From Acetivibrio alkalicellulosi (lineage in GTDB: Bacteria; Bacillota; Clostridia; Acetivibrionales; Acetivibrionaceae), in the NCBI GenBank assembly GCA_008125075.1, contig VLTH01000003.1, forward strand, positions 458,718 through 522,717: 64,000 nucleotides of DNA, read 5' to 3'. This document shows positions 3,846 to 20,869 of this stretch, piece after piece; the stretch's first letter is position 1; every line of letters starts with the position of its first letter. The notes under the pieces are model-generated. The model had not been told where the DNA came from, searched no databases, and worked only from the letters and a program-made list of their open reading frames with translations. The translations under genes and the position numbers were made by a program.

Positions 3846-3867
3846 TTAAAAATCAAAGGATTCTTAT

Positions 3868-3959
3868 TTATTCTGCTTTTTCAACAACAGACTCCGATTC
3901 ATTACCTATAACATCCATAAAGGATATTTCATTACCATCTCTGTCAACACCTATTGGAT
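3868..3959 (-). pseudogene. sigK 3'-half fragment, part 1 (copy 1)
   Basis: This fragment is nearly identical to the middle of intact sigK (16455-17162). It encodes NPIGVDRDGNEIS and then NESESVVE before leaving homology near 3868. It ends at 3959 in a 25-bp segment (3935-3959) that recurs with one mismatch at 5532-5556, where sigK homology resumes. The copy is therefore split by about 1.6 kb carrying an HTH fragment and a helicase fragment. Confidence 0.75.
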
Positions 3960-3960
3960 T

Positions 3961-4191
3961 TTGGAAGTGTTGAAATCTATTGCTGAACTTAAGGTTGATT
4001 CAATTGAGCTTTATGATGATTATTATAGCTTTTTGGATTATCCGTACTTTACAATGGTAAAAGAAGTTAGCCATAGGATGAGATTGACACAAAAGAAGTT
4101 TGGAGCATACTTTGGTGTTGGTAGACGATCAGTTAAGAGGTGGGAGTCAGGAAGGAATCGGGTTAGCAGGGGTAAAAACTCAATTAATTGA
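3961..4191 (+). pseudogene. HTH regulator fragment (HigA/XRE-like)
   Basis: The open frame carries an acidic N-terminal stretch and then MRLTQKKFGAYFGVGRRSVKRWESGR, which has the spacing of an XRE/HigA-like helix-turn-helix. It begins exactly where the sigK fragment ends, has no ribosome site, and stops soon after the recognition helix. I read it as the middle of an antitoxin-like regulator carried in with the inserted segment. Function cannot be assigned. Confidence 0.45.
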
Positions 4192-4299
4192 AGGAATTTC
4201 TTCATTTATGCAGAATTATTTCATAGTACTGGTTGAATTAGTTGTAAATTAAATATAATAAGTAAATTATTCAAGCCTGACCCTTAGGAGGATTAATAC

Positions 4300-5607
4300 T
4301 TGGATATAGAAAAACACCTTATTCTTGTGAAAAATGAAGATAAAACAGGGCAAATTAAATACTGTGAGTATACAAACAGCAAATGGACAGTTATTTTTAA
4401 TAACAATAGTAAACCTTATACATACAGCTACCTTAGCATTGAATGGTACAAAAACCCTAAAATAATAAGTCATGAGAATTGTGTAGTATATGAAAACTTT
4501 CAACCACTTTCGGGAGTTGTTAAAATAATTACCTTTGGAAAATATGTGAGAATTTTTTTTAAGACAGGATGTATAAAAACATATAATTCATCTAGTATTG
4601 TTATTGAAGAGTCTTGTCTTAAAAATAAAAAGGCACATATATGTTTTGAATACTTGAAAGAGCTAGTTGGTTTTGTAAGTGTGAAAGGGGAAGATGATGT
4701 AAGCCTTTTGAGCAAACAGTATAATAGAATTACTTACATTAGCCCAAAAAGTGTTTTGGCAGCATATTTAGAAAAGAAACTACTTAAAAAAGAAAATGAA
4801 GAAATACAACAGCCGATATTTCCTTTTGGATTTAATATAAGTCAAAAAGAAGCAACAAAGAAAGCTATCTCTGAGAAACTTAGTGTCATTGAAGGTCCTC
4901 CAGGAACAGGCAAAACTCAAACAATATTAAATATTATAGCAAATGCAGTGATAAATAATAAAACTGTTGCAGTGGTATCTAATAATAATTCTGCAACTTC
5001 CAATGTTTTTGAAAAATTGCAGAAGTATGGTATGGATTTTATTGCTGCACCTTTAGGGAATAGAGATAATAAAGAAAAATTTTTTAAGGATCAAAAAAAT
5101 GAGTATCCTGATATGAAATCATGGAATTTACCTTCTTCTGAAATTCATTCATTAAAAGAAAAATTGGTTCATAGGGGTAAAAAGTTAGATGAAATGCTTG
5201 AATATAAAAATGAAGAGGCTAAGCTTAAAGAAGAACTATCAGTATTAGATGTAGAATATAACTATTTTGAGAAATATTACAAAAATCTAGATGCAAGTCA
5301 TTCAATATTTAAATCATTTTTTTCAATTAGGGCAGACGAAATAATGGAAATAATAATTAATTACAAAAGAAAGGCTAGAAAAGGGGCTATTCCATTTAGA
5401 ACAAAATTATATAATTTAATTGTTTATGGTATATATAGCTTTAAAATTTATAAAGATAATCCTGAAAAGATAATACCTTTTTTACAAAATAGATACTATG
5501 AAGAAAAAATAGATGAATTAAAAGCTCAAATCCATCTCTTTCAACACCTATTGGATCCTAGAGAGAAACCTCACTTTGTATTTTTTTGCTGGATCTTATG
5601 TGCATAA
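4300..5607 (+). pseudogene. Superfamily I helicase-like ATPase, 3' truncated
   Basis: The frame starts at a TTG preceded by TAGGAGG. The N-terminal 170 residues form an unassigned beta-rich region. A helicase core then opens with the Q-motif-like FNISQKEATKKAI and the Walker A motif VIEGPPGTGKTQT (about residue 198-210), followed by motif Ia-like VAVVSNNNSATSNV and a coiled helical segment. Motifs II to VI, which should fill several hundred more residues, are absent. From residue about 411 the frame reads antisense through a sigK fragment and stops at 435. The protein cannot be a working helicase. Full-length relatives are DNA/RNA helicases often found with mobile or defence genes. Confidence 0.75.
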
Positions 5608-5624
5608 GAATTTTGTTTTCTATG
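5532..5624 (-). pseudogene. sigK 3'-half fragment, part 2 (copy 1, junction end)
   Basis: On the minus strand this matches sigK codons from the CIENEILMHIR region through the DPIGVDRDG region. At 5624 homology to intact sigK stops at the Ile-Glu-Asn-Glu codons. The next 25 or so bases instead match those beside sigK copy 2 (7335-7360). This junction resembles an attachment-site arm of a skin-type element. Confidence 0.7.
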
Positions 5625-5773
5625 ATATACTGATATCCTTGTTAACATAGATTTTCAATGAATAGTATAATAAAATAATACGAGAGTGGATTCATCTGTA
5701 AATCTTGATGGAAGAGAAATTGAAGAAAATTGAAAAGTATTTATATAAATTACAAATTACAAACTTATAAAAT

Positions 5774-5803
5774 TTGCAGCTAATAAACTGAATATGATAT
5801 AAT
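5774..5803 (+). promoter_or_regulatory. Probable promoter of Rpn copy A
   Basis: TTGCAG (5774-5779) and TATAAT (5798-5803) are 18 bp apart. The Rpn start codon lies 23 bp downstream behind AAAGGAG. Confidence 0.5.
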
Positions 5804-5825
5804 ATAAGCAGTAAAGGAGTTTTAT

Positions 5826-6785
5826 ATGAGTAGTAAAAATAAAGAAAAAATAAAGCTTGACCAGCTAATGAAGATAATGTTTAAATTATCAAAAAAGGTT
5901 ACAGTTTATTTGTTAAATGCTTTATTTGATGAAAATTATGACTATAATAAAGTAAAGATATACTATGGTAATGGTGAGTTTTTGTTGGATAATTTAAAGA
6001 AAGTACATGGAGACATGTTTATAACAGTAGAATGTAAAGAACGTTCGGTAAATTACCATATAGAATTTCAAACACTAAATGATAAAACAATGGCAATAAG
6101 GATGTTTACTTATGGATTTGAAAAAGCATTAGAATTAGCATGTAATCATGAAGGAGAAGAAATAGTACTGGATTTTCCAAAGCAGCTGGTAATATATTTA
6201 GAGAAAAATCAAAACATAAAAGATTCTATTTCGCTAATAATAAGAAAGCCAAATGAAAGCATGGAAAGATATGAATTTCCAACAATGAAGTACTGGGAAT
6301 ATACACAAGAGGATTTGATTAATAAAAAAATGTATGCATTACTGCCATTTCAAGTGTTTAATACACGAAAGGCAGTAGAGAGTATTTCAAATAGCAGAAA
6401 AACACATGAAGAAAAAGCACAGCTTATAAATATTGAGTTTAATAAATTGATAAAAGTAATTGAAAGTGTAGGAAAAAGCTCGGCAGATTTATATGAAAAA
6501 GAAGAAATAAATTTAAGTGATTTTGAGAGGATATTGTTAGTGCTTAAAAACATATCAGATTACATATATAATAAATATGGAGAATACGAGAAATTGGAGA
6601 AGGAGGTTGAAAATATGTTAACATCGTTATATAATCCAGCTATTGCAAAAGATAGCGAAAAGAAAAAAGCTTTTGAGATAGCGAGGGAAGCTATAAAAGA
6701 GGGAGCAGATATAGAGTTTGTTGCAAAAATAACAAAATTAGACAAAGAGGTAATAATAAATATAAAAGAAGAATTAAACAAATAA
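5826..6785 (+). CDS. Rpn family PD-(D/E)XK nuclease / putative transposase, copy A
   Basis: This 319-residue protein starts at an ATG behind AAAGGAG. The N-terminal nuclease domain shows LDQLMKIMFKLS, then LLNALFDENYDYNKVKI, LLDNLKKVHGDMFITVEC and HIEFQT, the usual layout of the Rpn/PD-(D/E)XK transposase-like family. The C-terminal part has the helical DLINKKMYALLPFQVF region and a closing repeat ending in INIKEELNK. Family members cut DNA and promote RecA-independent recombination. From 6001 onward it is almost identical to copy B (15351-16286), although B has a different N-terminus. A strong terminator follows and a convergent sigK 3' half lies beyond it. Confidence 0.8.
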   Translation: MSSKNKEKIKLDQLMKIMFKLSKKVTVYLLNALFDENYDYNKVKIYYGNGEFLLDNLKKVHGDMFITVECKERSVNYHIEFQTLNDKTMAIRMFTYGFEKALELACNHEGEEIVLDFPKQLVIYLEKNQNIKDSISLIIRKPNESMERYEFPTMKYWEYTQEDLINKKMYALLPFQVFNTRKAVESISNSRKTHEEKAQLINIEFNKLIKVIESVGKSSADLYEKEEINLSDFERILLVLKNISDYIYNKYGEYEKLEKEVENMLTSLYNPAIAKDSEKKKAFEIAREAIKEGADIEFVAKITKLDKEVIINIKEELNK

Positions 6786-6826
6786 ACACAAATAGTTACT
6801 TTTGAAAGATTAAAATTAAATAATTA

Positions 6827-6877
6827 GGGAGTGCAAAAAATTCAAATATACGGAATTATTTACACTCCCGTTTATTA
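6827..6877. terminator. Terminator between Rpn copy A and convergent sigK fragment
   Basis: The stem GGGAGTGCAAAAAATTC (from 6827) pairs with the arm ending CACTCCC at 6869, about 17 bp with few mismatches, with A/T runs on both sides. It is probably bidirectional. The same hairpin occurs at 16331. Confidence 0.7.
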
Positions 6878-6951
6878 ATAAACAGATAGTCGCAGTAAAG
6901 ATAATAATTCTTTTACGGGATGAATAAAAATCCGTTACACTAGGCTATCTT

Positions 6952-7334
6952 TTAAAAGCCATCAGGGCGTAATTCTCTCCCAAGTTTTTTTATAGCCTTT
7001 TTCTCAATTCTAGACACATATGACCTTGATATTCCAAGCATTTTAGCAAATTCTCTTTGAGTTTTACTTGTACCATTTAAAAGTCCATATCTAAGCTCTA
7101 AAACCTAAAACAAGTTTTTCTCTATTTTTTAATACATCTTTCATTTTCATATAAAAGCGCTTAATTTGCATTTTTAACTCTACTTCTTCAACAACAGACT
7201 CGGATTCATTACCTATAACATCCATCAAGGAAATTTCATTACCATCTCTGTCAACACCTATTGGATCATGGAGAGAAACCTCACTTTGTATTTTTTTGCT
7301 GAATCTTATGTACATAAGAATTTCGCTTTCTATG
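6952..7334 (-). pseudogene. sigK 3'-half copy 2 (spoIIIC-like), frameshifted
   Basis: This encodes the C-terminal half of sigma-K, from ESEILMYIRFSKK through the region 4 helix-turn-helix to LRPDGF. It is closely similar to the intact gene at 16455-17162. A 7-bp tandem duplication (CTAAAAC) near 7097-7110 breaks the frame before the region 4 helix. At 7334 homology to sigK ends at the CIENE codons and is replaced by a sequence shared with copy 1. In Bacillus the skin element splits sigK at this spot into spoIVCB and spoIIIC. No recombinase gene is present next to it. Confidence 0.75.
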
Positions 7335-7390
7335 ATATCCTTGTTAACATAGATTTTCTCATTCAAAAAGCCCTTAGATCCCTGATTCAC

Positions 7391-7585
7391 ATGGTTTTTC
7401 CATTATGCGTATTAGCAGATAATGCAACAGTAGGTCAAAAAATTCGTTTTTATAGGTTAAAAAGGAACGTAAATAGCAACATAATTTCAAAGAAAATTGG
7501 GGTAAGTCGGTATGCTTTTATGGATTGTGAGAGTGATAAAAAGGGACGCTCCTCAACAGATCCACTAAAAAGTGAAAAAGGTTGA
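7391..7585 (+). pseudogene. XRE-type HTH fragment
   Basis: The frame carries DNATVGQKIRFYRLKRN followed by ISKKIGVSRYAFMDCES, typical of the first half of an XRE helix-turn-helix regulator. It ends inside a hairpin at 7543-7596 and lacks the rest of the domain. No ribosome site is visible before the ATG at 7391. I read it as a 5' fragment of a regulator truncated by the xylanase-side insertion. Confidence 0.4.
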
Positions 7586-7596
7586 AAAGCGTCCCC
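7543..7596. repeat. Inverted repeat with GGGACGCT ends
   Basis: GGGACGCTCCTCAAC (7543-7557) pairs with GTTGAAAAGCGTCCCC (7581-7596). GGGACGNT-type hairpins of this sort are frequent at the ends of short transposable elements in Clostridia. Here it marks the edge of the xylanase gene and could also serve as its terminator. Confidence 0.5.
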
Positions 7597-7601
7597 GTTA
7601 C

Positions 7602-10600
7602 TTAGTCAATTAATTCAGCTAAATACAAAGCGTTATAAATGACTTGTAGACTTTCTTCATGGGTAATGTTTTGTTTTGGTCTCAAAGTACCATCACCATA
7701 TCCATTGTATACACCTAAAGCAACGATATCAATCATCTCGTTGGCCCATGTGGATATGGTATCTAGATCTTCAAAATCATTAACATCATTAACAATGGTT
7801 TCTAGAACTAAGAATATTCTAGTCCTTGCAATCATCACAGCCATTTCTTCTCTCGAAATGAAACGATCGCCTTTAAAAGTACCATCTGGATAACCCATAA
7901 TGATGCCTTTTTCTACCAATGTTGCAATAGCTCGATTGACTGTGGTATCCTCAGTCACATCTGTTAAAACAGCACTTGGCTTTTGACCTTCTAAACCCAA
8001 TGCACGGACTAAGTATACGGCAAAATCGGTACGTGTTAAATCTGCTGTTGGATTAAATGCATCCACATTCGGTATTACCATCCTAGATGCCATGTTATTC
8101 ACCATAGCTTCTGACCATCGTCCTTGCACCGATGCAACACGCACACTGTTATAAACAACGGCATAAATTGAATTGGACAGAGAACTTACAACCGCATAGT
8201 ATTGGTCATCGACTAAAACAACACGAGTGGGTACGGATCTAAAAGTGCCATCTGGATTTAAAGCAATCCCTGTTGTTACATCTTCAGGATCAACACCATC
8301 TGGTAATGCAAACATTATTGTTACAAATGAATCAAACGCGTTATACTGAGTGATCACAACATCTTTTACCACTTCCATGGTCACTCCAACAGGTTCAATC
8401 ACAAGATCAACACCCATTGTCTCAGCAGCAGCTTGCATCAATTCCATTTCTTCATCACTTGGTTTGGATACTCGAATCACAAGTTCATCCATTTCACCAA
8501 TAGCTTCTAATACATCTGCTGGAATATGATAACTAAACCCGTCTGCTTGTATTTCTAATCCAGCTGCCTTATCTTTTAACCCTGCAACCAATGCTTGATC
8601 TAAAGTTATTCTGGAATCTTCCAACTCAACATTCAACACAAGTGGCACTTGATCAGAAAGTGTTTCCATGACTGCTTCTAATTTCTCAAGATCCACAGTC
8701 ACCTCATTACCCTCTTGAATGGTTACAATGATTTGGGGTTCTCTATCATCTGGTCCAGCTTGCGGTATATCTGGTGTTTCAATTATTATGGTAGGTGGTG
8801 TTGTTGGTCTTACTGATGGCGTACGTGTTACTGGTGGTGTTATTGGTGGTGTAACAACTTCACCAACTTTTAATGTAAGAATTTGGGTTGTCTCTCCACC
8901 ATAATTCTTAGCAGCTACAGTAAAGGTATACTGACCATCTTCAGCTGGTTTACCTTCTAAAACACCTGTTCTAGAATGAAGCGTCACACCTTCTGGTAAT
9001 GCACCATCTATAATATTAAACCATACAGGCGCATTGGAACCTCTTTCCACATCTAGCATGGTAAAGATCCGTTCACCACTTTCTAAAGATTCTAGTGCTG
9101 TCGTTTGAATGATTGGTGCTGCAACCTCTGGTGTTGCCCAACCTTCTACTAAATCTACAATCGCATCAAATGCTGGTTTTGCAGATAAACTGCCATCAAA
9201 TAGTAATGGGAAGCCAGAACTTCTCCAACTGCTATTATCTGCCATACCCCAAATGGATACACGACTTAACTTGTCTGCACGTTCTAAGTATAACTCAAAA
9301 ATTTGCGCATACCGTTCTGCTTGTATCGCTAATTGTTCTGGTGAAAGCGCTGTGTAGGCATCGCTGCCATGACCACCATAAGTGATATCAAGCTCAGTCA
9401 CACTCACCCGTGCCCCTGTTTCAATATAACGATCTAACGCATCTCTCACATTGTCTACGCTGGTTGTCCAACCTTCGATGTGATAATGACTTTGCATACC
9501 AATAGACTCAATGAGCAATCTGCCATCATACTCATCATGGGCTTCCCAGATGGCATTGATTTCTTCTACCATTTGAGCAATTGCATCACGTTTAGCTGGA
9601 ATTTCATCATTGTAATCGTTATAGTATAGGATGGATGTTGGGAAATATTTTCTTGCATAATAGAACGCATAGAAAATATAATCGCTTGGATCTTCACCAG
9701 CTTCTGTATCTAAACCATTATTAAAAGCTTGATACCATGGTGACGCTGTTCGCATTTGTGTACGCCAGCTTCCTGGTTGATCTAACCATGTGCCACCACC
9801 ACTTGCAATAGCTTCGTTCACAACATCCCAACCATAAAAAGCCCCTAACGTACCTTGTGCTTCAAAATGCTCTGAAACAGTTTTTATGTAATACTCCATA
9901 CGATCTTTGGCTTCTGCTCTTGTTAGCGGTGTGTTAGCCGCACTTCTAAAGAGCCAGTTTGGACTTTGCGAATGCCATACAAGGGCATGCCCAACTAATT
10001 GTATGTCATTTTTAATAGCAAAGTTTACAATTCGGTCTGCATCCGTAAAGTTAAATTGCTCAGGCGTTGGTACTGTATAGCTATTTTCTGGCCCTGCAAT
10101 ACTGGATGGTTTATGACCGTTTTCTGCTGTAATTACATTAAAGTGATGTAAAAATGCTTCACTTGTTTGATTGGAGTTCATTAAAGTTTCTGTGGAATAA
10201 ATGTTACCAAGACCAAAGTATGGCTCAAATAATTCCGCTAACCTAGGCTCATCAAAATTCCATTTTGGTGTTGATGGTAAGCCTTCGGTATCAAGATCAC
10301 CAATCTGATACACAAACACATCATCAATGGTAATGGTTACTGTTGCTGCATTACCTGTTTGAATTCGAAGACCTCTTTGTCCACTACTGATCAACGTATT
10401 AATCTGTAAACGACTTAAGGTCACATCAATGGTCCATTCTGTCGCAGAAGGAGCTACACTTGTCGTAGATCCAATAAGATTCCATGGTGAATCGGTTTGA
10501 TTCCATTGAATGGTTCGATTACCTGTACCAGCCCCTACCGCCATACGACCGTTAGCCACAAAACGATAGCTACCGCCACGTTCCACACCAATGGCTGGGA

Positions 10601-13547
10601 ACATAAAGTCTAGAGCATGCCAGTTTTCTGAACGATTGCTAAGCTCTATACTGATCTGTCCTGCTTCTTCTGGATGTGCTACAACAGTCACCACTGGTGA
10701 ACCAGAAACCAACATGGCTTCACTCACATCATCAAAGTCGCCAGCAGTACCTGTTGCCCCAATTTCTAAACCTTGAAGGGCTGCATCATCTGCCATTGAA
10801 TAGACTAACACAGCTGGTGGGTCTACCGACGGATCATCTGATGGATCACCTGGTGTGACATCTGCTACTGCAATCAAGGTGACTTTAACCGAATCTAAGT
10901 AAAATTCTACATTTACATCTTGATGTTCGAAGTTCAGGTTAAAGGATGTCATGTCTTCTGGCATGGTTAATTCAGTCTTAAACTCAACAAATCCATCTTC
11001 TACGGTTAATGTGCGATTGGATAACCAAGGCCATTGATTGCCAGTAGAAATCCCTTCATTGTACTCACCACTCATTACATAGTTGTTGTCCACATCGGCT
11101 TTTGCGGCCATATAGCCAACAAACTCATAGGTGTTTCCTGGTTGAACGATGCCTGTCAACGGCAAAGATGCACCATGCCAATTTTGAGCACGATCGCTCA
11201 CAAGAACAGAATAATCGCCTTCGTGACTCACTTCATCTGTCCGAGTTAATGTGGCACTGCCACGACTGTTGAAACCATCTAAGTCTGTTTCAAAACTTGT
11301 ATCAACTAGTACAACTGGTAAAGCTGGTGCACTATCACCATCTAGTACCAGCCAGCCCCAAAATTCGGTAGACTGCCAGCCATTATCAGTATGATCATTC
11401 CATTTAGAAAATGCTTGTCTGCCAGATGTTTCACCAACTGTCCAGGCATCATTGACTTGTAAGTCAAATCCAAGCCTTCTACCAGCATAGACTTCACCCT
11501 CTAATGGAATACGCACTTCCACTTGATAACCATTTGAACTGTCTTGTACCTCAAAAGTCATGCCTTCTATAGTCCCTGTAGAACCATAAGAATGTATACC
11601 TGCTCGGTTAAATCGAAGTTGATAGTCGCCAGGCATATAGTTAGAAATTCTTGAGTCTGTATTGGATATAAATACCTCAAGAGAATCCTGTTCATGGGCT
11701 TCCGATGCCGCTACATTAGGTGTATGGTCGGTGACATTGGCTAAGATATAAATCGCATCTTCGTGCCATACAACCCTTGCAACCGCTGTAGCACCATTAT
11801 GGGCTGTCATTTGATTAGCCACTGGTATCACTTCTGAATCTTGATACGCCTCCAGATTAAAATCACCTACGACAGGTTGTCCTTTAGATGCCAATGCTGT
11901 TTGAGCATCTGGTGTTTCTGGCAGGGGATATGCTATAAGGAAAGCATCTGGATCCGCAATGGCATGGAAGACATGCTTTGGTCCATATTGAGGATCTAGT
12001 AAATTTGGATGACGATCTGCTCGCCATGATTCACGATCAGACATCCCCCAGAAAGTGACTCGATGAATCACATCGCTATGATCTCTTAAAATTTGCATCA
12101 ATTGGGCATAAAATTGAGCTTGACGAATTTCAACTTCTTCTGGTAAACGTGCTGCGTCTTCAAAACCAGGTACCGTAACGTCAATTTCTGTCAAACTAAT
12201 GCCGATGGGTGGTAAATCTTCGTGTCCAGTAATTTCACTAAAACGCTCAATACTTGTTCGAATGGAATTTAAGGGTGTCTGTAAATTATAATGACCTTGC
12301 ATCCCAATGCGATGAATGGGTACACCTGCGTCACGCAACTCTTGCACCATTGCTTTTATAATGGTGGCTTTAAAATAATCATTGTCATTATAATCGTTAT
12401 AATAGAGGATAGCATCTGGGTCCATTTCATGGGCGATGTTAAAGGCTATCGCAATATAATCCTCACCAATGGCACGTAACCATTTGGTATCACGCAAATG
12501 TAAGCGCCAATCTTCTGGGTCAAGGCCTTGTCTTGGTTGAATGGCTTCATTTAAAACATCCCAGCCTGTTATGACACCTGGATAGGTATCATTAAAATGG
12601 CCCATAACAGTTTCAATATGATCTCTCATAATTTCGATGGCTTCATCACGGGTTGGCTCTAACGCTTCAAACCATGGGAAGGATTGAGAGTGCCATATCA
12701 AAGTATGTCCAATGACTTCTTGATTAGTATCCTTAGCAAAATTCATCATATCATTGGCTGCATTAAAGGTAAACACACCTTGTACATTTTGCAAATGATC
12801 GGGCTTCATAATATTTTCAGCTGTGATCACATTAAAATGATGGGCTAATACTTCACCACGTATATCTGTGCGAAAACCTGGTGTATAAATATTACCCATG
12901 GTAAAGTGATCTGCCCAAATCTTATGTAGCGGAGTTGCTTCTAATGTAATTGGTGCCCTTCTAACGTTTAAAGGCAAATCACTTTCGTCTGCTTCTTCAA
13001 GTAAAGTCACACGAACTGAATCTAAATAAAATTCAATGTTAGCATTTTGATGTTCAAAGTTCAGATTAAAGTTTGTCATGTCTTCTGGCATGGTTAATAC
13101 TGCCCTAAACTCAACAAATCCATCTTCAACGGTTAATAATCGATTGGATAACCAAGGCCATTGATTGCCAGTAGAAATCCCTGCATTGTACTCGCCACTC
13201 ATTATGTAGTTGTTGTCCACATCGGCTTTTGCGGCCATATAACCCACAAACTCGTAAGTATTACCTGGTTGAACAATCCCTGTTAGTGGCAACGACGCAC
13301 CATGCCAATTTTCATTTCGGTTACTCACAAGAACCGCATACTCACCTTCATATTTAACATCTGTGATGCGTTCTAAAGTAGAATCACCACGACCTACGAA
13401 ACCACCTAAATCGGTTTCAAAACTTGTTTCCACTAACACCCTTGGTACTGTGCTAGGCTCATCCGCTGCAAAAGACGTTATGACCATGGTCATCATTAGT
13501 ACACTACTCATGATCCATGCTAATACACGTTTACTTCTTACCATCAT
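7602..13547 (-). CDS. S-layer-anchored endo-1,4-beta-xylanase with two GH10 domains
   Basis: This 1981-residue secreted enzyme starts at an ATG behind GGGGAGGAG; an upstream frame extension is ignored. In order it has a signal peptide (1 to about 28), a CBM22-like module (35-185), GH10-1 (200-535), a CBM9 module (550-740), a second CBM22-like module nearly copying the first (745-890), a third CBM-like module (about 910-1080), GH10-2 (1090-1470), an Ig-like module (1477-1566), a Pro/Thr linker, an unassigned 200-residue region, and three SLH repeats (about 1810-1981). Both GH10 domains keep their acid/base (WDVLNEA, WDVVNEA) and nucleophile (TEID, TELD) glutamates. It should bind the cell envelope and cut xylan outside the cell. 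The gene is visibly richer in G+C than its neighbours and lies between direct repeats, which suggests acquisition by transfer. Confidence 0.93.
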   Translation of the reverse strand: MMVRSKRVLAWIMSSVLMMTMVITSFAADEPSTVPRVLVETSFETDLGGFVGRGDSTLERITDVKYEGEYAVLVSNRNENWHGASLPLTGIVQPGNTYEFVGYMAAKADVDNNYIMSGEYNAGISTGNQWPWLSNRLLTVEDGFVEFRAVLTMPEDMTNFNLNFEHQNANIEFYLDSVRVTLLEEADESDLPLNVRRAPITLEATPLHKIWADHFTMGNIYTPGFRTDIRGEVLAHHFNVITAENIMKPDHLQNVQGVFTFNAANDMMNFAKDTNQEVIGHTLIWHSQSFPWFEALEPTRDEAIEIMRDHIETVMGHFNDTYPGVITGWDVLNEAIQPRQGLDPEDWRLHLRDTKWLRAIGEDYIAIAFNIAHEMDPDAILYYNDYNDNDYFKATIIKAMVQELRDAGVPIHRIGMQGHYNLQTPLNSIRTSIERFSEITGHEDLPPIGISLTEIDVTVPGFEDAARLPEEVEIRQAQFYAQLMQILRDHSDVIHRVTFWGMSDRESWRADRHPNLLDPQYGPKHVFHAIADPDAFLIAYPLPETPDAQTALASKGQPVVGDFNLEAYQDSEVIPVANQMTAHNGATAVARVVWHEDAIYILANVTDHTPNVAASEAHEQDSLEVFISNTDSRISNYMPGDYQLRFNRAGIHSYGSTGTIEGMTFEVQDSSNGYQVEVRIPLEGEVYAGRRLGFDLQVNDAWTVGETSGRQAFSKWNDHTDNGWQSTEFWGWLVLDGDSAPALPVVLVDTSFETDLDGFNSRGSATLTRTDEVSHEGDYSVLVSDRAQNWHGASLPLTGIVQPGNTYEFVGYMAAKADVDNNYVMSGEYNEGISTGNQWPWLSNRTLTVEDGFVEFKTELTMPEDMTSFNLNFEHQDVNVEFYLDSVKVTLIAVADVTPGDPSDDPSVDPPAVLVYSMADDAALQGLEIGATGTAGDFDDVSEAMLVSGSPVVTVVAHPEEAGQISIELSNRSENWHALDFMFPAIGVERGGSYRFVANGRMAVGAGTGNRTIQWNQTDSPWNLIGSTTSVAPSATEWTIDVTLSRLQINTLISSGQRGLRIQTGNAATVTITIDDVFVYQIGDLDTEGLPSTPKWNFDEPRLAELFEPYFGLGNIYSTETLMNSNQTSEAFLHHFNVITAENGHKPSSIAGPENSYTVPTPEQFNFTDADRIVNFAIKNDIQLVGHALVWHSQSPNWLFRSAANTPLTRAEAKDRMEYYIKTVSEHFEAQGTLGAFYGWDVVNEAIASGGGTWLDQPGSWRTQMRTASPWYQAFNNGLDTEAGEDPSDYIFYAFYYARKYFPTSILYYNDYNDEIPAKRDAIAQMVEEINAIWEAHDEYDGRLLIESIGMQSHYHIEGWTTSVDNVRDALDRYIETGARVSVTELDITYGGHGSDAYTALSPEQLAIQAERYAQIFELYLERADKLSRVSIWGMADNSSWRSSGFPLLFDGSLSAKPAFDAIVDLVEGWATPEVAAPIIQTTALESLESGERIFTMLDVERGSNAPVWFNIIDGALPEGVTLHSRTGVLEGKPAEDGQYTFTVAAKNYGGETTQILTLKVGEVVTPPITPPVTRTPSVRPTTPPTIIIETPDIPQAGPDDREPQIIVTIQEGNEVTVDLEKLEAVMETLSDQVPLVLNVELEDSRITLDQALVAGLKDKAAGLEIQADGFSYHIPADVLEAIGEMDELVIRVSKPSDEEMELMQAAAETMGVDLVIEPVGVTMEVVKDVVITQYNAFDSFVTIMFALPDGVDPEDVTTGIALNPDGTFRSVPTRVVLVDDQYYAVVSSLSNSIYAVVYNSVRVASVQGRWSEAMVNNMASRMVIPNVDAFNPTADLTRTDFAVYLVRALGLEGQKPSAVLTDVTEDTTVNRAIATLVEKGIIMGYPDGTFKGDRFISREEMAVMIARTRIFLVLETIVNDVNDFEDLDTISTWANEMIDIVALGVYNGYGDGTLRPKQNITHEESLQVIYNALYLAELID

Positions 13548-13633
13548 ATGTTCTCCTCCCCAAATAATGAAATGTAGCAAATTGACGGGAAATTTTTATA
13601 GATTGATCAGTTCAAGATATTAATAGATAGGCA

Positions 13634-13674
13634 TTTGCTATTTTTATAATATCATAGCAAACCCTGTTTTTCAA
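13634..13674 (-). promoter_or_regulatory. Probable xylanase promoter with overlapping palindrome
   Basis: On the minus strand TTGAAA (13674-13669), a 17-bp spacer and TATTAT (13651-13646) lie about 100 bp before the start codon. An inverted repeat TTTGCTAT (13634-13641) and ATAGCAAA (13654-13661) straddles the -10 and is a candidate repressor site. Confidence 0.5.
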
Positions 13675-13818
13675 TACTAACTATTGATTTACAATGAAAA
13701 CTGACCACTGTTTTACACTAAAAGTTGTAAATTATTTTCAATTAACCAGACGATTTATTGACTGAATTCATCAAATATGATTAAATATATATAATTAATT
13801 AATTTAGGAAGTGATTTG

Positions 13819-15222
13819 ATGGACAGATTCATAACCTTACAAAAGATAAATCGTTGGTGGTCTACAGGCAAAGTCGATACTCCTTTTCTTTTCAAAGTGC
13901 TCCGAGACGAGTTTAATGAAATAACAGCACGTTTAGAAGATAGGAGAATTTTATCGCTTATTGGGCCAAGGCGAGTAGGTAAATCAACCCTAATATATCA
14001 AACGATTGACTTCTTACTTAAATCCGATATAGATCCCAAACGTATTTTACTATTCAGTGGGGATGAACCAGGACTTTTTAGCAACAACGAAACAATCAAC
14101 GATATTCTAAATGACTATTCAAGAGAAATCTTGAACCAAAGCCTAGAAACCTTAGAGAATAAAATATATATCTTTATTGATGAAATTCATTTTATCAAGG
14201 ATTGGCAGCTATACTTAAAAAGTTTTTATGACAGGAGATACAAAGTTAAGCTTATCATAAGTGGCTCATCTTCGACTCATTTATTTAAGGATTCAAGAGA
14301 ATCCCTCATGGGTAGATTAGATGATATATACATCCTGCCACTTGGAATGGGACAATTTACAAAGTTTTATTCAGCTTATAAGGAAGAAATGAATCTGGAC
14401 AATTTAAGTCAGTTACTTCCTGCCCAATCCTTATTTGATGATCCAGAAGAATATTATCGTACAATAAACGAAAACAAGTATAAAATAGCTGAGTATGAAG
14501 GTGTCATGAACAAGATTATCAAATCTTACCTTTTAGTTGGCGGATATCCTGAATACTTTGACACTAACAGTATTTTACTATGGCAAAAACGATTAGTCGA
14601 TGACATTATTTCAAGAGGACTTTACCGAGATATTGTTAGTATTTACAATATTAAAAATCCTGAAATATTAGAAAGACTCATGTACTACATTGCGGCTAAT
14701 AGTGGTGGCGAGTTCTCATATTCGAGTATTGCACAAACTCTGGGAGTAGATACAGTCACGATTTCATCCTATATTAACTATTTATCACAGGCATTTTTTA
14801 TTAGTGTATGCGACAACTATTCTGCCAATATAGGTAAAGTGATTAGAAAGAATAAAAAAGTATTTATTGCAGATAGTGGTATTCGGAATGCCATGCTAAG
14901 AAACAATGAATTATCAGCTGAGGACGAAGGCTTTCAAGTTGAAAATTGTTCTATTCAAATAGCGAGAAGTTATTGTGAACCAGAAAATTACTCTGTATAT
15001 TTCTGGCGTGATAATCAAAAAGAAACAGATATTGTTATTGATAAGAAGATAGAACTATTACCAATAGAAGTGAAATATCGAAATACCATTCTTGATAAAG
15101 ATATAAAAGGATTATTGGCATTCAAAGAAAAGTATAAAACCAAAACAGGAGTTGTTATTACAAAGACTTATTTAGATAAAAAAGATGACATTATTTATAT
15201 TCCTTTTTGGATGATTCGATAG
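13819..15222 (+). CDS. AAA_14 / DUF4143 ATP-binding protein
   Basis: This is a 467-residue protein. The Walker A motif LIGPRRVGKSTLI lies at about residue 49-61 and the Walker B motif IYIFIDEIHFIKDW at about 117. The sensor stretch LIISGSSSTHL follows, then the C-terminal DUF4143 region with a helix-turn-helix-like segment (IAQTLGVDTVTISSYINYL) and a nuclease-like end (KETDIVID ... LPIEVKY). I chose the ATG at 13819 because AGGAAGTG lies just upstream. The family is widespread and its cellular role is unknown. Base composition is closer to the host than that of the xylanase. It sits divergent from the xylanase, inside the segment bracketed by the repeat blocks. Confidence 0.85.
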   Translation: MDRFITLQKINRWWSTGKVDTPFLFKVLRDEFNEITARLEDRRILSLIGPRRVGKSTLIYQTIDFLLKSDIDPKRILLFSGDEPGLFSNNETINDILNDYSREILNQSLETLENKIYIFIDEIHFIKDWQLYLKSFYDRRYKVKLIISGSSSTHLFKDSRESLMGRLDDIYILPLGMGQFTKFYSAYKEEMNLDNLSQLLPAQSLFDDPEEYYRTINENKYKIAEYEGVMNKIIKSYLLVGGYPEYFDTNSILLWQKRLVDDIISRGLYRDIVSIYNIKNPEILERLMYYIAANSGGEFSYSSIAQTLGVDTVTISSYINYLSQAFFISVCDNYSANIGKVIRKNKKVFIADSGIRNAMLRNNELSAEDEGFQVENCSIQIARSYCEPENYSVYFWRDNQKETDIVIDKKIELLPIEVKYRNTILDKDIKGLLAFKEKYKTKTGVVITKTYLDKKDDIIYIPFWMIR

Positions 15223-15350
15223 CAAACTTAGATAAAACAAAGAAAAAATAAAGCTTGACCAGCTAATGCTTTATTTGATGCATTACCAAGTGACAGTAAG
15301 AAAAAGTTTACAATATAGGCTTTTGTAATCAAAAATTTTATAACAATCAA

Positions 15351-16286
15351 TTGATTATTTTAACTGAGGAAAAGGATAAAGATAAACCATTGCTTGTATA
15401 CAAAACAGCGAAGGGTAATCATGCAAGGGGAATTTATAATCAACGTCAAATAGATGTAATATTTGAAGAAGTAATACCAGAACAAAAGAAAGTACATGGA
15501 GACATGTTTATAACAGTAGAATGTAAAGAACGTTCGGTAAATTACCATATAGAATTTCAAACACTAAATGATAAAACAATGGCAATAAGGATGTTTACTT
15601 ATGGATTTGAAAAAGCATTAGAATTAGCATGTAATCATGAAGGAGAAGAAATAGTACTGGATTTTCCAAAGCAGCTGGTAATATATTTAGAGAAAAATCA
15701 AAACATAAAAGATTCTATTTCGCTAATAATAAGAAAGCCAAATGAAAGCATGGAAAGATATGAATTTCCAACAATGAAGTACTGGGAATATACACAAGAG
15801 GATTTGATTAATAAAAAAATGTATGCATTACTGCCATTTCAAGTGTTTAATACACGAAAGGCAGTAGAGAGTATTTCAAATAGCAGAAAAACACATGAAG
15901 AAAAAGCACAGCTTATAAATATTGAGTTTAATAAATTGATAAAAGTAATTGAAAGTGTAGGAAAAAGCTCAGCAGATTTATACGAAAAAGAAGAAATAAA
16001 TTTAAGGGATTTTGAGAGGATATTGTTAGTGCTTAAAAACATATCAGATTACATATATAATAAATATGGAGAATACGAGAAATTGGAGAAGGAGGTTGAA
16101 AATATGTTAACATCGTTATATAATCCAGCTATTGCAGAAGAAAACAGAAAAATAGGAGAAAAGAAAAAAGCTTTTGAGATAGCGAGGGAAGCTATAAAAG
16201 AGGGAGCAGATATAGAGTTTGTTGCAAAAATAACAAAATTAGACAAAGAGGAAATAATAAATATAAAAGAAGAATTAAACAAATAA
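15351..16286 (+). CDS. Rpn family nuclease, copy B with replaced N-terminus
   Basis: Residues from about 48 to the end are nearly identical to copy A, including GDMFITVECKERS and HIEFQT. A six-codon insertion (ENRKIG) lies near the C-terminus. The first 47 residues (EEKDKDKPLLVYKTAKGN...) are unrelated to copy A and replace the conserved LDQLMKIMFKL and LLNALFDENYD segments. A short scrap of that lost sequence survives upstream at 15239-15285. The first codon is not a strong start and no ribosome site is visible. It is therefore probably a non-functional mosaic, possibly formed by joining two Rpn-like genes. Confidence 0.55.
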   Translation: MIILTEEKDKDKPLLVYKTAKGNHARGIYNQRQIDVIFEEVIPEQKKVHGDMFITVECKERSVNYHIEFQTLNDKTMAIRMFTYGFEKALELACNHEGEEIVLDFPKQLVIYLEKNQNIKDSISLIIRKPNESMERYEFPTMKYWEYTQEDLINKKMYALLPFQVFNTRKAVESISNSRKTHEEKAQLINIEFNKLIKVIESVGKSSADLYEKEEINLRDFERILLVLKNISDYIYNKYGEYEKLEKEVENMLTSLYNPAIAEENRKIGEKKKAFEIAREAIKEGADIEFVAKITKLDKEEIINIKEELNK

Positions 16287-16330
16287 ACACAAAGAAATAG
16301 TTACTTTTGAAAGATTAAAATTAAATAAAC

Positions 16331-16380
16331 GGGAGTGTAAAAAATTCGAATATACAGAATTATTTACACTCCCATTTATT
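16331..16380. terminator. Terminator between Rpn copy B and convergent sigK
   Basis: The inverted repeat GGGAGTGTAAAAAATTC (from 16331) pairs with the arm ending CACTCCC at 16373, with flanking A/T runs. It matches the terminator at 6827 and probably serves both converging genes. Confidence 0.7.
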
Positions 16381-16454
16381 AACAAACAGATAGGCGAAGT
16401 AAAGCTAATAATTCTTTTACGGGTGAATAAAAATCCATTACACTAGGCTATCTT

Positions 16455-17162
16455 TTAAAAGCCATCAGGACGTAATTCTCTACCAAGTTTCTTTATAGCC
16501 TTTTTCTCGATTCTAGACACATATGACCTTGATATTCCAAGCATTTTAGCAATTTCTCTTTGAGTTTTGCTTGTGCCGTTTAAAAGTCCATATCTAAGCT
16601 CTAAAACAAGTTTTTCTCTATTTTTTAATACATCTTTCATTTTCATATACAAGCGTTTAATTTGCATTTTTAACTCTACTTCTTCAACAACAGATTCAGA
16701 TTCATGACATATAACATCAATTAAAGATATTTCATTTCCATCTCTGTCAACACCTATTGGATCCTGGAGAGAAACCTCACTTTGTATTTTTTTACTTGAT
16801 CTTATGTGCATAAGAATTTCGTTTTCTATGCACCTTGCTGCATATGTTGCAAGTCTAGTGCCTTTGTCGTGGTTAAATGTAGCAATAGCTTTTATAAGTC
16901 CTATTGTACCAATTGAAATAAGGTCATCACAGTCACTAGAAATAGAATTATATTTTTTTACAATATGAGCAACAAGACGTAAATTTCTTTCAATCAAAAC
17001 ATTTCGTGCATCTTCATTGCCGGCTCCCAATTGCTTAATAAAGTGCTGTTCTTCTTCCGGATTTAATGGCTGAGGGAATGAATTGACATTTGAGACATAT
17101 CCAAAAAGAAAGAATACATTTTTTACAATATCAAATAATGGTATAAGCAGAATGTTATACAA
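16455..17162 (-). CDS. sigK: RNA polymerase sporulation sigma factor sigma-K
   Basis: This 235-residue protein directs late mother-cell transcription during sporulation. The N-terminal hydrophobic pro-sequence (about residues 1-20, NILLIPLFDIVKNVFFLFGY) is present, so activity should await cleavage by a SpoIVFB-type protease. Then come FPQPL, the region 2 core RNLRLVAHIVKKY and DDLISIGTIGLIKAI, ATYAARCIENEILMHIR, and the region 4 helix-turn-helix [23 protein letters not shown]. It starts at a TTG behind TGGAGG. The gene is uninterrupted here, unlike the skin-split Bacillus gene, but two truncated 3' copies lie 9.5 and 11-13 kb away. It follows a PBP gene on the same strand. Confidence 0.93.
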   Translation of the reverse strand: MYNILLIPLFDIVKNVFFLFGYVSNVNSFPQPLNPEEEQHFIKQLGAGNEDARNVLIERNLRLVAHIVKKYNSISSDCDDLISIGTIGLIKAIATFNHDKGTRLATYAARCIENEILMHIRSSKKIQSEVSLQDPIGVDRDGNEISLIDVICHESESVVEEVELKMQIKRLYMKMKDVLKNREKLVLELRYGLLNGTSKTQREIAKMLGISRSYVSRIEKKAIKKLGRELRPDGF

Positions 17163-20230: not shown

Positions 20231-20869
20231 TTACTTTTTGTAGCTTATTGCTACACCATCACCTATAGGTATTATGCTTGTTTCTAGTTCATCAGTGCTG
20301 CAAATCTCATCTAGGTAGATTCTTAGCCTGTTTACAATGGTTCTCTTTCTTCTTACTACTAGTGTATCATTGGCAATCATTCCTTTATATAATACATTAT
20401 CTGAGATTAAAAGACCACCATTTTTAAGAAGACGCAAACATTCTGGTAGAAATTCTGGATATTGGCCTTTGGCTGCATCAAGAAAAATCATATCATATTG
20501 CTTGTTAATACACTTTATTACTTCAAGAGCATCTCCTTGTATTATGTTTATAGTATGCTCAACATTTGCTTTTTTAATATTTTCTTTTGCCCTTTCAAGC
20601 ATTAATTCATATCTATCTATAGTATCAATTTTTCCTCCTGGCTCTAAAAAAGAAGATAATAAAATTGATGAATAGCCAATTGCAGTACCTATTTCTAATA
20701 CATTACTTGGTTTATGAGAAAGAGTAATAACTTTTAATAGTGCTGCCACCTCAGGGTGTATAATTGGAACATGGTTTTCTTTGGCAAAATCCTCTAGTTC
20801 AAGTAGTATACCAGTATTTTTTTTTATTGTATTTCGAATATATTCATTTATATAATCAATGGAAACCAT
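20231..20869 (-). CDS. trmR: tRNA 5-hydroxyuridine methyltransferase
   Basis: This 212-residue class I SAM-dependent O-methyltransferase has EIGTAIGYSS (SAM-binding motif I), the acidic DTID strand, IIQGDALE, and the metal-binding region IFLDAAKGQY followed by SDNVL. It belongs to the YrrM/TrmR group, which makes 5-methoxyuridine in tRNA. It lies between mltG and the U32 gene, as in Bacillus. I chose the ATG at 20869; an in-frame TTG 21 bp upstream lies within the AAGGAAGG ribosome site region. Confidence 0.87.
   Translation of the reverse strand: MVSIDYINEYIRNTIKKNTGILLELEDFAKENHVPIIHPEVAALLKVITLSHKPSNVLEIGTAIGYSSILLSSFLEPGGKIDTIDRYELMLERAKENIKKANVEHTINIIQGDALEVIKCINKQYDMIFLDAAKGQYPEFLPECLRLLKNGGLLISDNVLYKGMIANDTLVVRRKRTIVNRLRIYLDEICSTDELETSIIPIGDGVAISYKK

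What the first reader, a model, noticed from the sequence alone, without database searches (positions are those of the whole stretch)
3868..17162. Three copies of sigK 3' half, two ending at a skin-type junction
Intact sigK (16455-17162) is accompanied by two 3'-half-only copies (6952-7334, and 3868-3959 plus 5532-5624). Both partial copies leave sigK homology at the Cys-Ile-Glu-Asn-Glu codons and then share about 25 bp of non-sigK sequence (near 5625-5655 and 7335-7360). In Bacillus this codon region is where the skin element splits sigK (spoIVCB/spoIIIC). I infer that a skin-like element, or repeated recombination at its attachment site, left footprints here. No recombinase gene lies in the window.
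Basis: partly seen in the sequence, partly recalled or inferred. Interest (0 to 1): 0.75.

Follow-up and report, generated by a model that had tools for sequence, protein, structure and literature searches.

The report
Fossil half-copies of sporulation gene sigK
Next to a working copy of the spore-forming switch gene sigK, this bacterium carries broken copies of its second half that still end in sequence like the landing site of a mobile element that splits this gene in a relative, so they look like scars of such an element that has since gone.

Summary
One intact sigK (16455-17162) is followed by two same-orientation copies of its 3' half. Both leave sigK homology at the Ile-Glu-Asn-Glu codons, and both carry the same 25 bp of non-sigK sequence (7334-7358, 5632-5656). 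A further 3'-half fragment on another contig lies between uvrB and uvrA and starts at the same codons.

Eight of 39 relatives have sigK in halves, and the elements read inside hold serine-recombinase-like genes. Copy 1's arm matches the element side of the 3' junction (attR) of one of them, G030, at 21 of 27 positions in fixed register; in 282,762 scanned positions only that site reached this. Copy 2 has the same arm, shifted by an 8-bp insert. So both are most likely attR junctions of a lost G030-type sigK-intervening element.

How they came to be repeated is not settled. Most likely the attR/3'-half/Rpn-like segment was duplicated in tandem before the element was excised. No second 5' half or G030-like recombinase was found in this genome. 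The off-window fragment's upstream sequence is no better than chance. New variant of a known kind; moderate interest.

The parts
16455..17162 (-). intact sigK (235 aa), uninterrupted (attB state)
   Evidence: NCBIfam TIGR02846 and NF004471 over cut-off; only full-length SigK-level match in the genome
16819..16823 (-). AACGA at the Asn-Glu codons of intact sigK, the attB core position
   Evidence: sequence; same codons where the G030, G039, G023 and G017 elements split sigK
6952..7331 (-). copy 1: sigK 3' half, pseudogene with 7-bp duplication; AGCGA at the core position 7323-7327
   Evidence: 93.3% of 373 columns to intact 3' half
7334..7358 (-). element-side (attR) arm of copy 1
   Evidence: 27 bases upstream of the core match G030's attR arm at 21 positions in fixed register
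5532..5624 (-). copy 2, first part: sigK 3' half from the core; core position altered to AACAA (5613-5617)
   Evidence: 94.4% of 90 columns to intact
5632..5656 (-). arm of copy 2, identical to that of copy 1 but 8 bp further from the core (13 of 27 to G030 if the insert is not taken out)
   Evidence: exact match; register counts
3864..3959 (-). copy 2, second part: continuation of the interrupted 3' half, cut off near aa 168
   Evidence: 85.3% to intact, 90.2% to copy 1 over 102 columns
3960..5531 (+). 1.57-kb insert in copy 2 (HTH-like fragment and 5' part of a helicase-like gene), 25-bp direct repeat at its edges (3935-3959 / 5532-5556)
4061..4171 (+). HTH-like fragment whose only other match in the genome is in the uvrB-uvrA insert that also holds a sigK 3'-half fragment
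   Evidence: 85% over 111 bp to C2:2101683-2101793, 2 matches at E 0.01; HTH_3 20.9 bits, under its cut-off of 23
5826..6785 (+). Rpn-like gene, copy in the second unit
   Evidence: TIGR01784 E 0.002, under its cut-off; PF04754 E 0.0027, under its cut-off
15351..16286 (+). Rpn-like gene next to intact sigK, 5' end rearranged
   Evidence: TIGR01784 E 5.9e-6, under its cut-off; 100% identical to the other copy over four consecutive 100-column windows
7602..15222 (.). genes between the two units: GH10 xylanase with CBM and SLH domains (7602-13580, -) and AAA_14/DUF4143 ATPase (13816-15222, +)
   Evidence: Pfam

Best explanation
Copies 1 and 2 are attR junctions (element half-site plus sigK 3' half) of a skin-type, sigK-intervening element of the G030 kind that once split sigK in this lineage. 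Most likely history: the segment attR-3' half-Rpn-like gene was duplicated in tandem downstream of the element; the element was then excised (attL x first attR) or replaced by an uninterrupted allele, which restored sigK; the extra attR/3'-half copies stayed as decaying fossils, later broken by insertions. They need have no present function. Shown: the repeats, the common junction, the similar arm, split sigK genes with recombinase-like genes in relatives. Inferred: that this lineage itself carried the element, the duplication, the order of events.
For: Junction at the same codons as in relatives' split genes, G022 excepted. Copy 1's upstream 27 bases match G030's attR arm at 21 positions without gaps, and at 16 of the 20 furthest from the core; against intact sigK the latter is 1 of 20. 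In 282,762 positions of nine relatives' loci one position reached the score, and G030's own site is necessarily it. A 16-base version reached 14 of 16 at 22 of 4,502,090 positions of other loci, 15 of them perfect matches, which I take to be the window's own sites in overlapping loci. A pattern made from the two sites hit only copy 1 and G030 at 0-1 mismatch in 58 order genomes, with four further genomes at 3 mismatches and the reversed control in two; a longer one hit only these two at up to 3 mismatches in 391 class genomes, control none. This shows rarity, not independent confirmation. By eye, G030's two element arms read as imperfect inverted repeats (printout). A viral contig (L246) with a 43%-identical recombinase ends against a piece of the sigK 5' half (aa 86-120) cut at the same codons. 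Eight of 39 relatives have sigK in halves. Intact sigK and the copies form one group in the trees (support 100 with copy 1, 92 with copies 1 and 2). In this genome about 19 kb separate sigK from two genes that follow it directly in G009.
Against: All 14 held genomes of the family, this one included, have intact sigK, and none of the other 13 has a second 3'-half match beyond short or weak ones (best E 9e-9, 69 bp). No second 5' half, hence no attL, and no G030-like recombinase in this genome. Beyond the arm the two copies' flanks differ, although one tandem duplication should have copied them. Core positions of both copies are not canonical attR (GA instead of GC before it; AGCGA, AACAA). Copy 2 matches G030 at only 13 of 27 in fixed register because of its insert. 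sigK parts are about 93% and Rpn-like parts up to 100% identical, so a single event with uniform divergence does not fit. The off-window fragment's arm is no better than chance.
Confidence: 0.6

Rival explanations
1. Site-specific accretion: integrative elements whose attachment site is half-site plus a sigK 3' half inserted one after another at the sigK core. Each restored sigK with its own 3' half and pushed the previous 3' half downstream.
For: Topology (intact gene, then cargo, then displaced 3' halves, all in one orientation) and the identical 25-bp arm followed by different flanks fit. Within the 4-8.5 kb fetched, what lies downstream of sigK differs in the genus: G002 and G003 each have their own genes, G001 and G004 share theirs. 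An island separates sigK from its G009 neighbours.
Against: By established knowledge (recalled; the attP x attB and attL x attR rule is also in the passages), large serine recombinases do not join attR to attB. No large serine recombinase in the window. No displaced 3' half in G001-G004. The intact gene's 5' and 3' halves place this genome alike, outside G001-G004, so the 3' half does not look imported.
Confidence: 0.15
2. Ordinary illegitimate or nuclease-linked duplication of the sigK 3' half and the Rpn-like gene, with no mobile element; the match to G030 is chance.
For: The duplicated block includes the Rpn-like gene. Other patchwork insertions occur (3960-5531, and the uvrB-uvrA insert). 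The off-window fragment's arm shows no element signal.
Against: The breakpoint coincides with the codons where relatives' genes are split, and no position but G030's own reached copy 1's score in 282,762, with six attR arms compared.
Confidence: 0.13
3. The attR/3'-half segment came in from a related strain that carried the element; this genome's own sigK was never interrupted.
For: sigK is intact in all 14 held family genomes. The off-window fragment is nearer G002 (86.6%) than the resident gene (82.6%) over 201 columns.
Against: Copy 1 and the first part of copy 2 are nearer the resident sigK (93-94%) than any other sigK in the comparison, so the donor would have to be a very close relative.
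Confidence: 0.12

Closest known systems
skin (sigK-intervening) elements, e.g. skin of Bacillus subtilis, skinCd of Clostridioides difficile
   Same: sigK divided at a short core, large serine recombinase, attL/attR half-sites with imperfect inverted repeats (C. difficile: passages of PMC5025042)
   Different: here sigK is whole, the element is absent, and only 3'-side junctions remain, in more than one copy; B. subtilis and C. difficile sites themselves were not fetched or aligned
sigK-split elements of relatives: G030 (L054), G039 (L053), G017 (L057), G023 (L055), Ruminiclostridium hungatei (L109)
   Same: same split codons; G030's element arm is the counterpart of the window's arm
   Different: they have both halves and a recombinase-like gene, the window has neither attL nor recombinase; G030's recombinase lies next to the 5' half, in G039 and G017 it lies next to the 3' half
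sigK-integrated prophages (Alicyclobacillus phage MMB025, PMC13141910, passages; C. tetani site A, PMC5553647, passages)
   Same: integration into sigK with a serine-type (SpoIVCA-like) integrase
   Different: prophages; displaced 3' halves were not mentioned in the passages read

Membership tests
skin-type sigK-intervening element | sigK divided into 5' and 3' parts at a common core | tested here: not met
   resident sigK is whole and no second 5' half was found; only 3'-half copies cut at the core position
skin-type sigK-intervening element | serine recombinase within the element | tested here: not met
   none in the window; of the genome's seven PF07508 matches the loci of four align to the G030 recombinase at 24-28% identity, the other three not at E 1e-5
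skin-type sigK-intervening element | attR: element half-site joined to the sigK 3' part at the core | tested here: met
   copy 1, 21 of 27 positions to G030 attR in fixed register; copy 2 has the same arm but an 8-bp insert, 13 of 27 in register
skin-type sigK-intervening element | attL: sigK 5' part joined to the other element half-site | tested here: not met
   no second 5' half in the genome; the attL arm itself was not searched as a pattern
skin-type sigK-intervening element | excision during sporulation | not testable with these tools
   needs sporulating cells
Rpn recombination-promoting nuclease family | score over the NCBIfam/Pfam cut-off | tested here: inconclusive
   TIGR01784 26.3 and 18 bits against 52.1; PF04754 17.8 against 21 for the 5826-6785 copy, no PF04754 match listed for the other

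The most novel reading that the evidence does not exclude
Small elements that carry their own sigK 3' half use the skin attachment site to insert one after another behind sigK. They keep the gene whole while they stack cargo (xylanase, ATPase, Rpn-like genes) and displaced 3' halves downstream, which would make sigK an accretion hotspot and not only a developmental switch.
Probability: 0.12. Interest if true: 0.65.

Novelty: new variant of a known kind. Interest (0 to 1): 0.42.

Why it matters
Skin-type elements are present in some spore formers and absent in their relatives, but how they are lost is seldom visible. If this reading is right, a lineage with an intact sigK still holds mappable 3' junctions of the lost element, so gain, duplication and loss can be tested by strain comparison. 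It also points to a recombinase subgroup (G030, and viral contig L246) that lies next to the sigK 5' half.

Tried and rejected
Imported 3' half in the intact gene: 5' and 3' halves both place this genome outside G001-G004, so rejected.

Off-window fragment as a third proven attR: its upstream 27 bases match the six arms no better than chance (best 11 of 27, reached at 20,620 of 282,762 positions). Only its boundary and the HTH-like fragment shared by the two loci connect it to the window.

C1:586324 45-bp hit: A+T-rich, no junction seen, taken as chance. Arm pattern in viral contigs: 18 contigs matched, none with a sigK match at E 1e-3. Recombinase homologue in G082 (37%): no sigK match in the fetched 4.7 kb. 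Relatives' aldo/keto-reductase-like downstream gene (L051): only 35-36% matches here, no help with synteny.

Genus-specific downstream genes as proof of accretion: they differ between species, but no displaced 3' halves were found there. Naming the duplicated gene Rpn: under the cut-offs, so kept as 'Rpn-like'.

Names not tested by a family search, given from reading the sequence: uvrB, uvrA, MCP-like, AI-2E-like, mutS2. Recombinase status was tested with Pfam for G030 only; the others are by similarity or reading.

Papers: the searches listed 20, 7, 0, 1, 5 and 8 (of 19) papers; none, by title or abstract start, reports repeated sigK 3' halves. Passages only were read of PMC13141910, PMC5025042, PMC5553647 and PMC6957869. 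Not a claim beyond this library.
Full report
WHAT IS THERE. The window is part of contig C3 (458718-522717) of a 5.3-Mb, 3-contig genome. sigK at 16455-17162 is intact and scores over the SigK cut-offs. Towards lower coordinates, in the same orientation, lie copy 1 of its 3' half (6952-7334) and copy 2 (5532-5624 continued at 3864-3959). Copy 1 is 93.3% identical to the intact 3' half over 373 columns and has a 7-bp tandem duplication. Copy 2 is interrupted by 1.57 kb with a 25-bp direct repeat (96%) at its edges and is cut off near codon 168. The repeated block is larger than sigK: 5996-7334 matches 15485-16830 at 95% and includes a neighbouring Rpn-like gene. In 100-column windows identity is 90-96% in sigK and 100% in four consecutive windows of that gene, so the Rpn-like parts were exchanged or duplicated more recently than the sigK parts.

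THE JUNCTION. Both copies lose sigK homology at the Ile-Glu-Asn-Glu codons. They share 25 bp, GAAAATCTATGTTAACAAGGATATC, at 7334-7358 and 5632-5656, for which a search of the genome with 281 bases around copy 1's arm found no other match. In copy 2 an 8-bp insert separates the arm from the core. Beyond the arm the two flanks differ.

RELATIVES. A SigK search of 40 genomes, this one and 39 relatives, found 30 with a full-length match (this genome included), 8 with sigK in halves and 2 without a SigK-level match (G014, G026). Of the 8, both halves lie on one contig in G017, G022, G023, G030 and G039; in G038 they lie on two contigs; in G031 only a 5' half was listed (the list was cut short); in G028 both halves end at contig ends, so an assembly break cannot be excluded. 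All 14 held genomes of the family are intact. The break lies at the same codons in G017, G023, G030 and G039, in the 5' halves of G031 and G038 and in R. hungatei; in G022 the 5' part runs on past them. Serine-recombinase-like genes lie in the elements read: L053, L054, L057, L055 and, weaker, L056, L109 and L112; Pfam was run on that of L054 only. Six attR arms could be used (G030, G039, G023, G017, R. hungatei, MnB_11). G022 was left out because its junction differs; G028 and G038 because contigs end or homology starts late; G031 because only its 5' half was found.

THE MATCH. Anchored at the Asn codon, copy 1's upstream 27 bases match G030's attR arm at 21 positions (the other five arms: 10 to 14); over the 20 bases furthest from the core it is 16, against 1 of 20 for the intact gene. 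Copy 2 in the same register gives 13 of 27, because of its insert. Scanning 282,762 positions of nine relatives' loci, one position reached copy 1's scores; the pool contains G030's site, which must be it. A 16-base version reached 14 of 16 at 22 of 4,502,090 positions of other loci, 15 of which were perfect matches, taken to be the window's own sites in overlapping loci. The pattern searches are not independent, since the pattern came from the two sites, but they show rarity: in 58 order genomes six had a match, copy 1 and G030 at one mismatch and four others at three, while the reversed control matched in two; with a longer pattern and up to three mismatches, only copy 1 and G030 in 391 class genomes, control none. 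By eye, G030's attR arm and the reverse complement of its attL arm read as an imperfect inverted repeat (GTGT...AACA.GG...ATAGC; printout), as expected for the two half-sites of one recombinase. In a viral contig (L246) a recombinase 43% identical to G030's ends against a short piece of the sigK 5' half (aa 86-120) cut at the same codons. The window arm is therefore best read as the element half-site of attR.

THE OFF-WINDOW FRAGMENT. A 201-bp piece of the 3' half, again starting at the Asn-Glu codons, lies at C2:2103941-2104141. In the five relatives where uvrB was found (G002, G003, G004, G007, G009, of six searched) a uvrA frame begins about 0.1-0.8 kb after it, in G009 with a small open frame between; here about 3.4 kb separate the two. 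That stretch also holds an HTH-like fragment whose only other match in the genome is at window 4061-4171, inside copy 2's insert. The sigK fragment is nearer G002 (86.6%) than the resident gene (82.6%) over 201 columns; the tree places it with the other genus members at 71% support, with G002 at 56%. It shares with the resident gene the bases at the Cys-His codons that copy 1 lacks. Its upstream bases do not resemble known arms beyond chance. I leave its origin open.

SETTING. Upstream of sigK the gene order is shared in the genus. Downstream, within the 4-8.5 kb fetched, G002 and G003 each have different genes, while G001 and G004 share theirs. In G009 two genes (AI-2E-like and mutS2 by my reading) follow sigK directly; in this genome their counterparts (47% and 72%) lie about 19 kb away at C3:452803-456288, so an island separates them from sigK.

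MECHANISM. Best reading: an element of the G030 kind split sigK; the segment attR-3' half-Rpn-like gene was duplicated in tandem; excision through attL and the first attR, or replacement by a whole allele, restored sigK; the remaining attR/3'-half copies decayed and were broken by insertions. The att reading rests; the order of events is inference. Against it: no second 5' half or matching recombinase was found, differing flanks beyond the arm, non-canonical core bases, and uneven divergence. The chief rival, accretion of elements that carry their own 3' half, explains the flanks better but needs a reaction (attR x attB) not known to me for this recombinase class, and no displaced 3' halves were found in the other 13 family genomes (only short or weak further matches, best E 9e-9).

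KNOWN KINDS. C. difficile's skin has half-sites with a 5-bp and a 22-bp imperfect inverted repeat and needs a directionality factor to excise (passages of PMC5025042). B. subtilis and C. difficile elements use different places in sigK (passage of PMC6957869). As an element this locus fails the membership test (no split gene, recombinase or attL); as a footprint copy 1 meets the attR test.

Noticed in passing
L191, L193, L195-L203, L205-L208 (IMG/VR contigs): In 15 of 23 viral contigs with a sigK match, sigK runs to about codon 144-152 (Gly-Asn-Glu codons) and then leaves homology: a second apparent integration point about 32 codons after the classical one, in the ones read also at AATGA or AACGA. 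L191 has both halves.
   Followed up: partly
L109, about 7882-10005 (Ruminiclostridium hungatei): A sigK-intervening stretch of only about 2.1 kb whose one long frame is a recombinase-like gene (547-aa open frame): a near-minimal element.
   Followed up: partly
L054 2613-4457 and L246: Recombinase subgroup next to the sigK 5' half; in G030 the frame overlaps the antisense of the 5' half. Only 2 of 291 class genomes have a match at E 1e-120, G030 and G082.
   Followed up: partly
L009 2722-6154: About 3.4 kb between uvrB and uvrA, which lie within 0.1-0.8 kb in the five relatives where uvrB was found.
   Followed up: partly
16704-16709: Intact SigK reads Cys-His here; the six relatives aligned have Gly or Ser and then Ser, Asn or Asp, copy 1 has Gly-Asn, and the off-window fragment shares the resident gene's bases.
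   Followed up: no
7602-13580: 1,992-aa open frame with two GH10 stretches, CBM and SLH domains between the two units.
   Followed up: no
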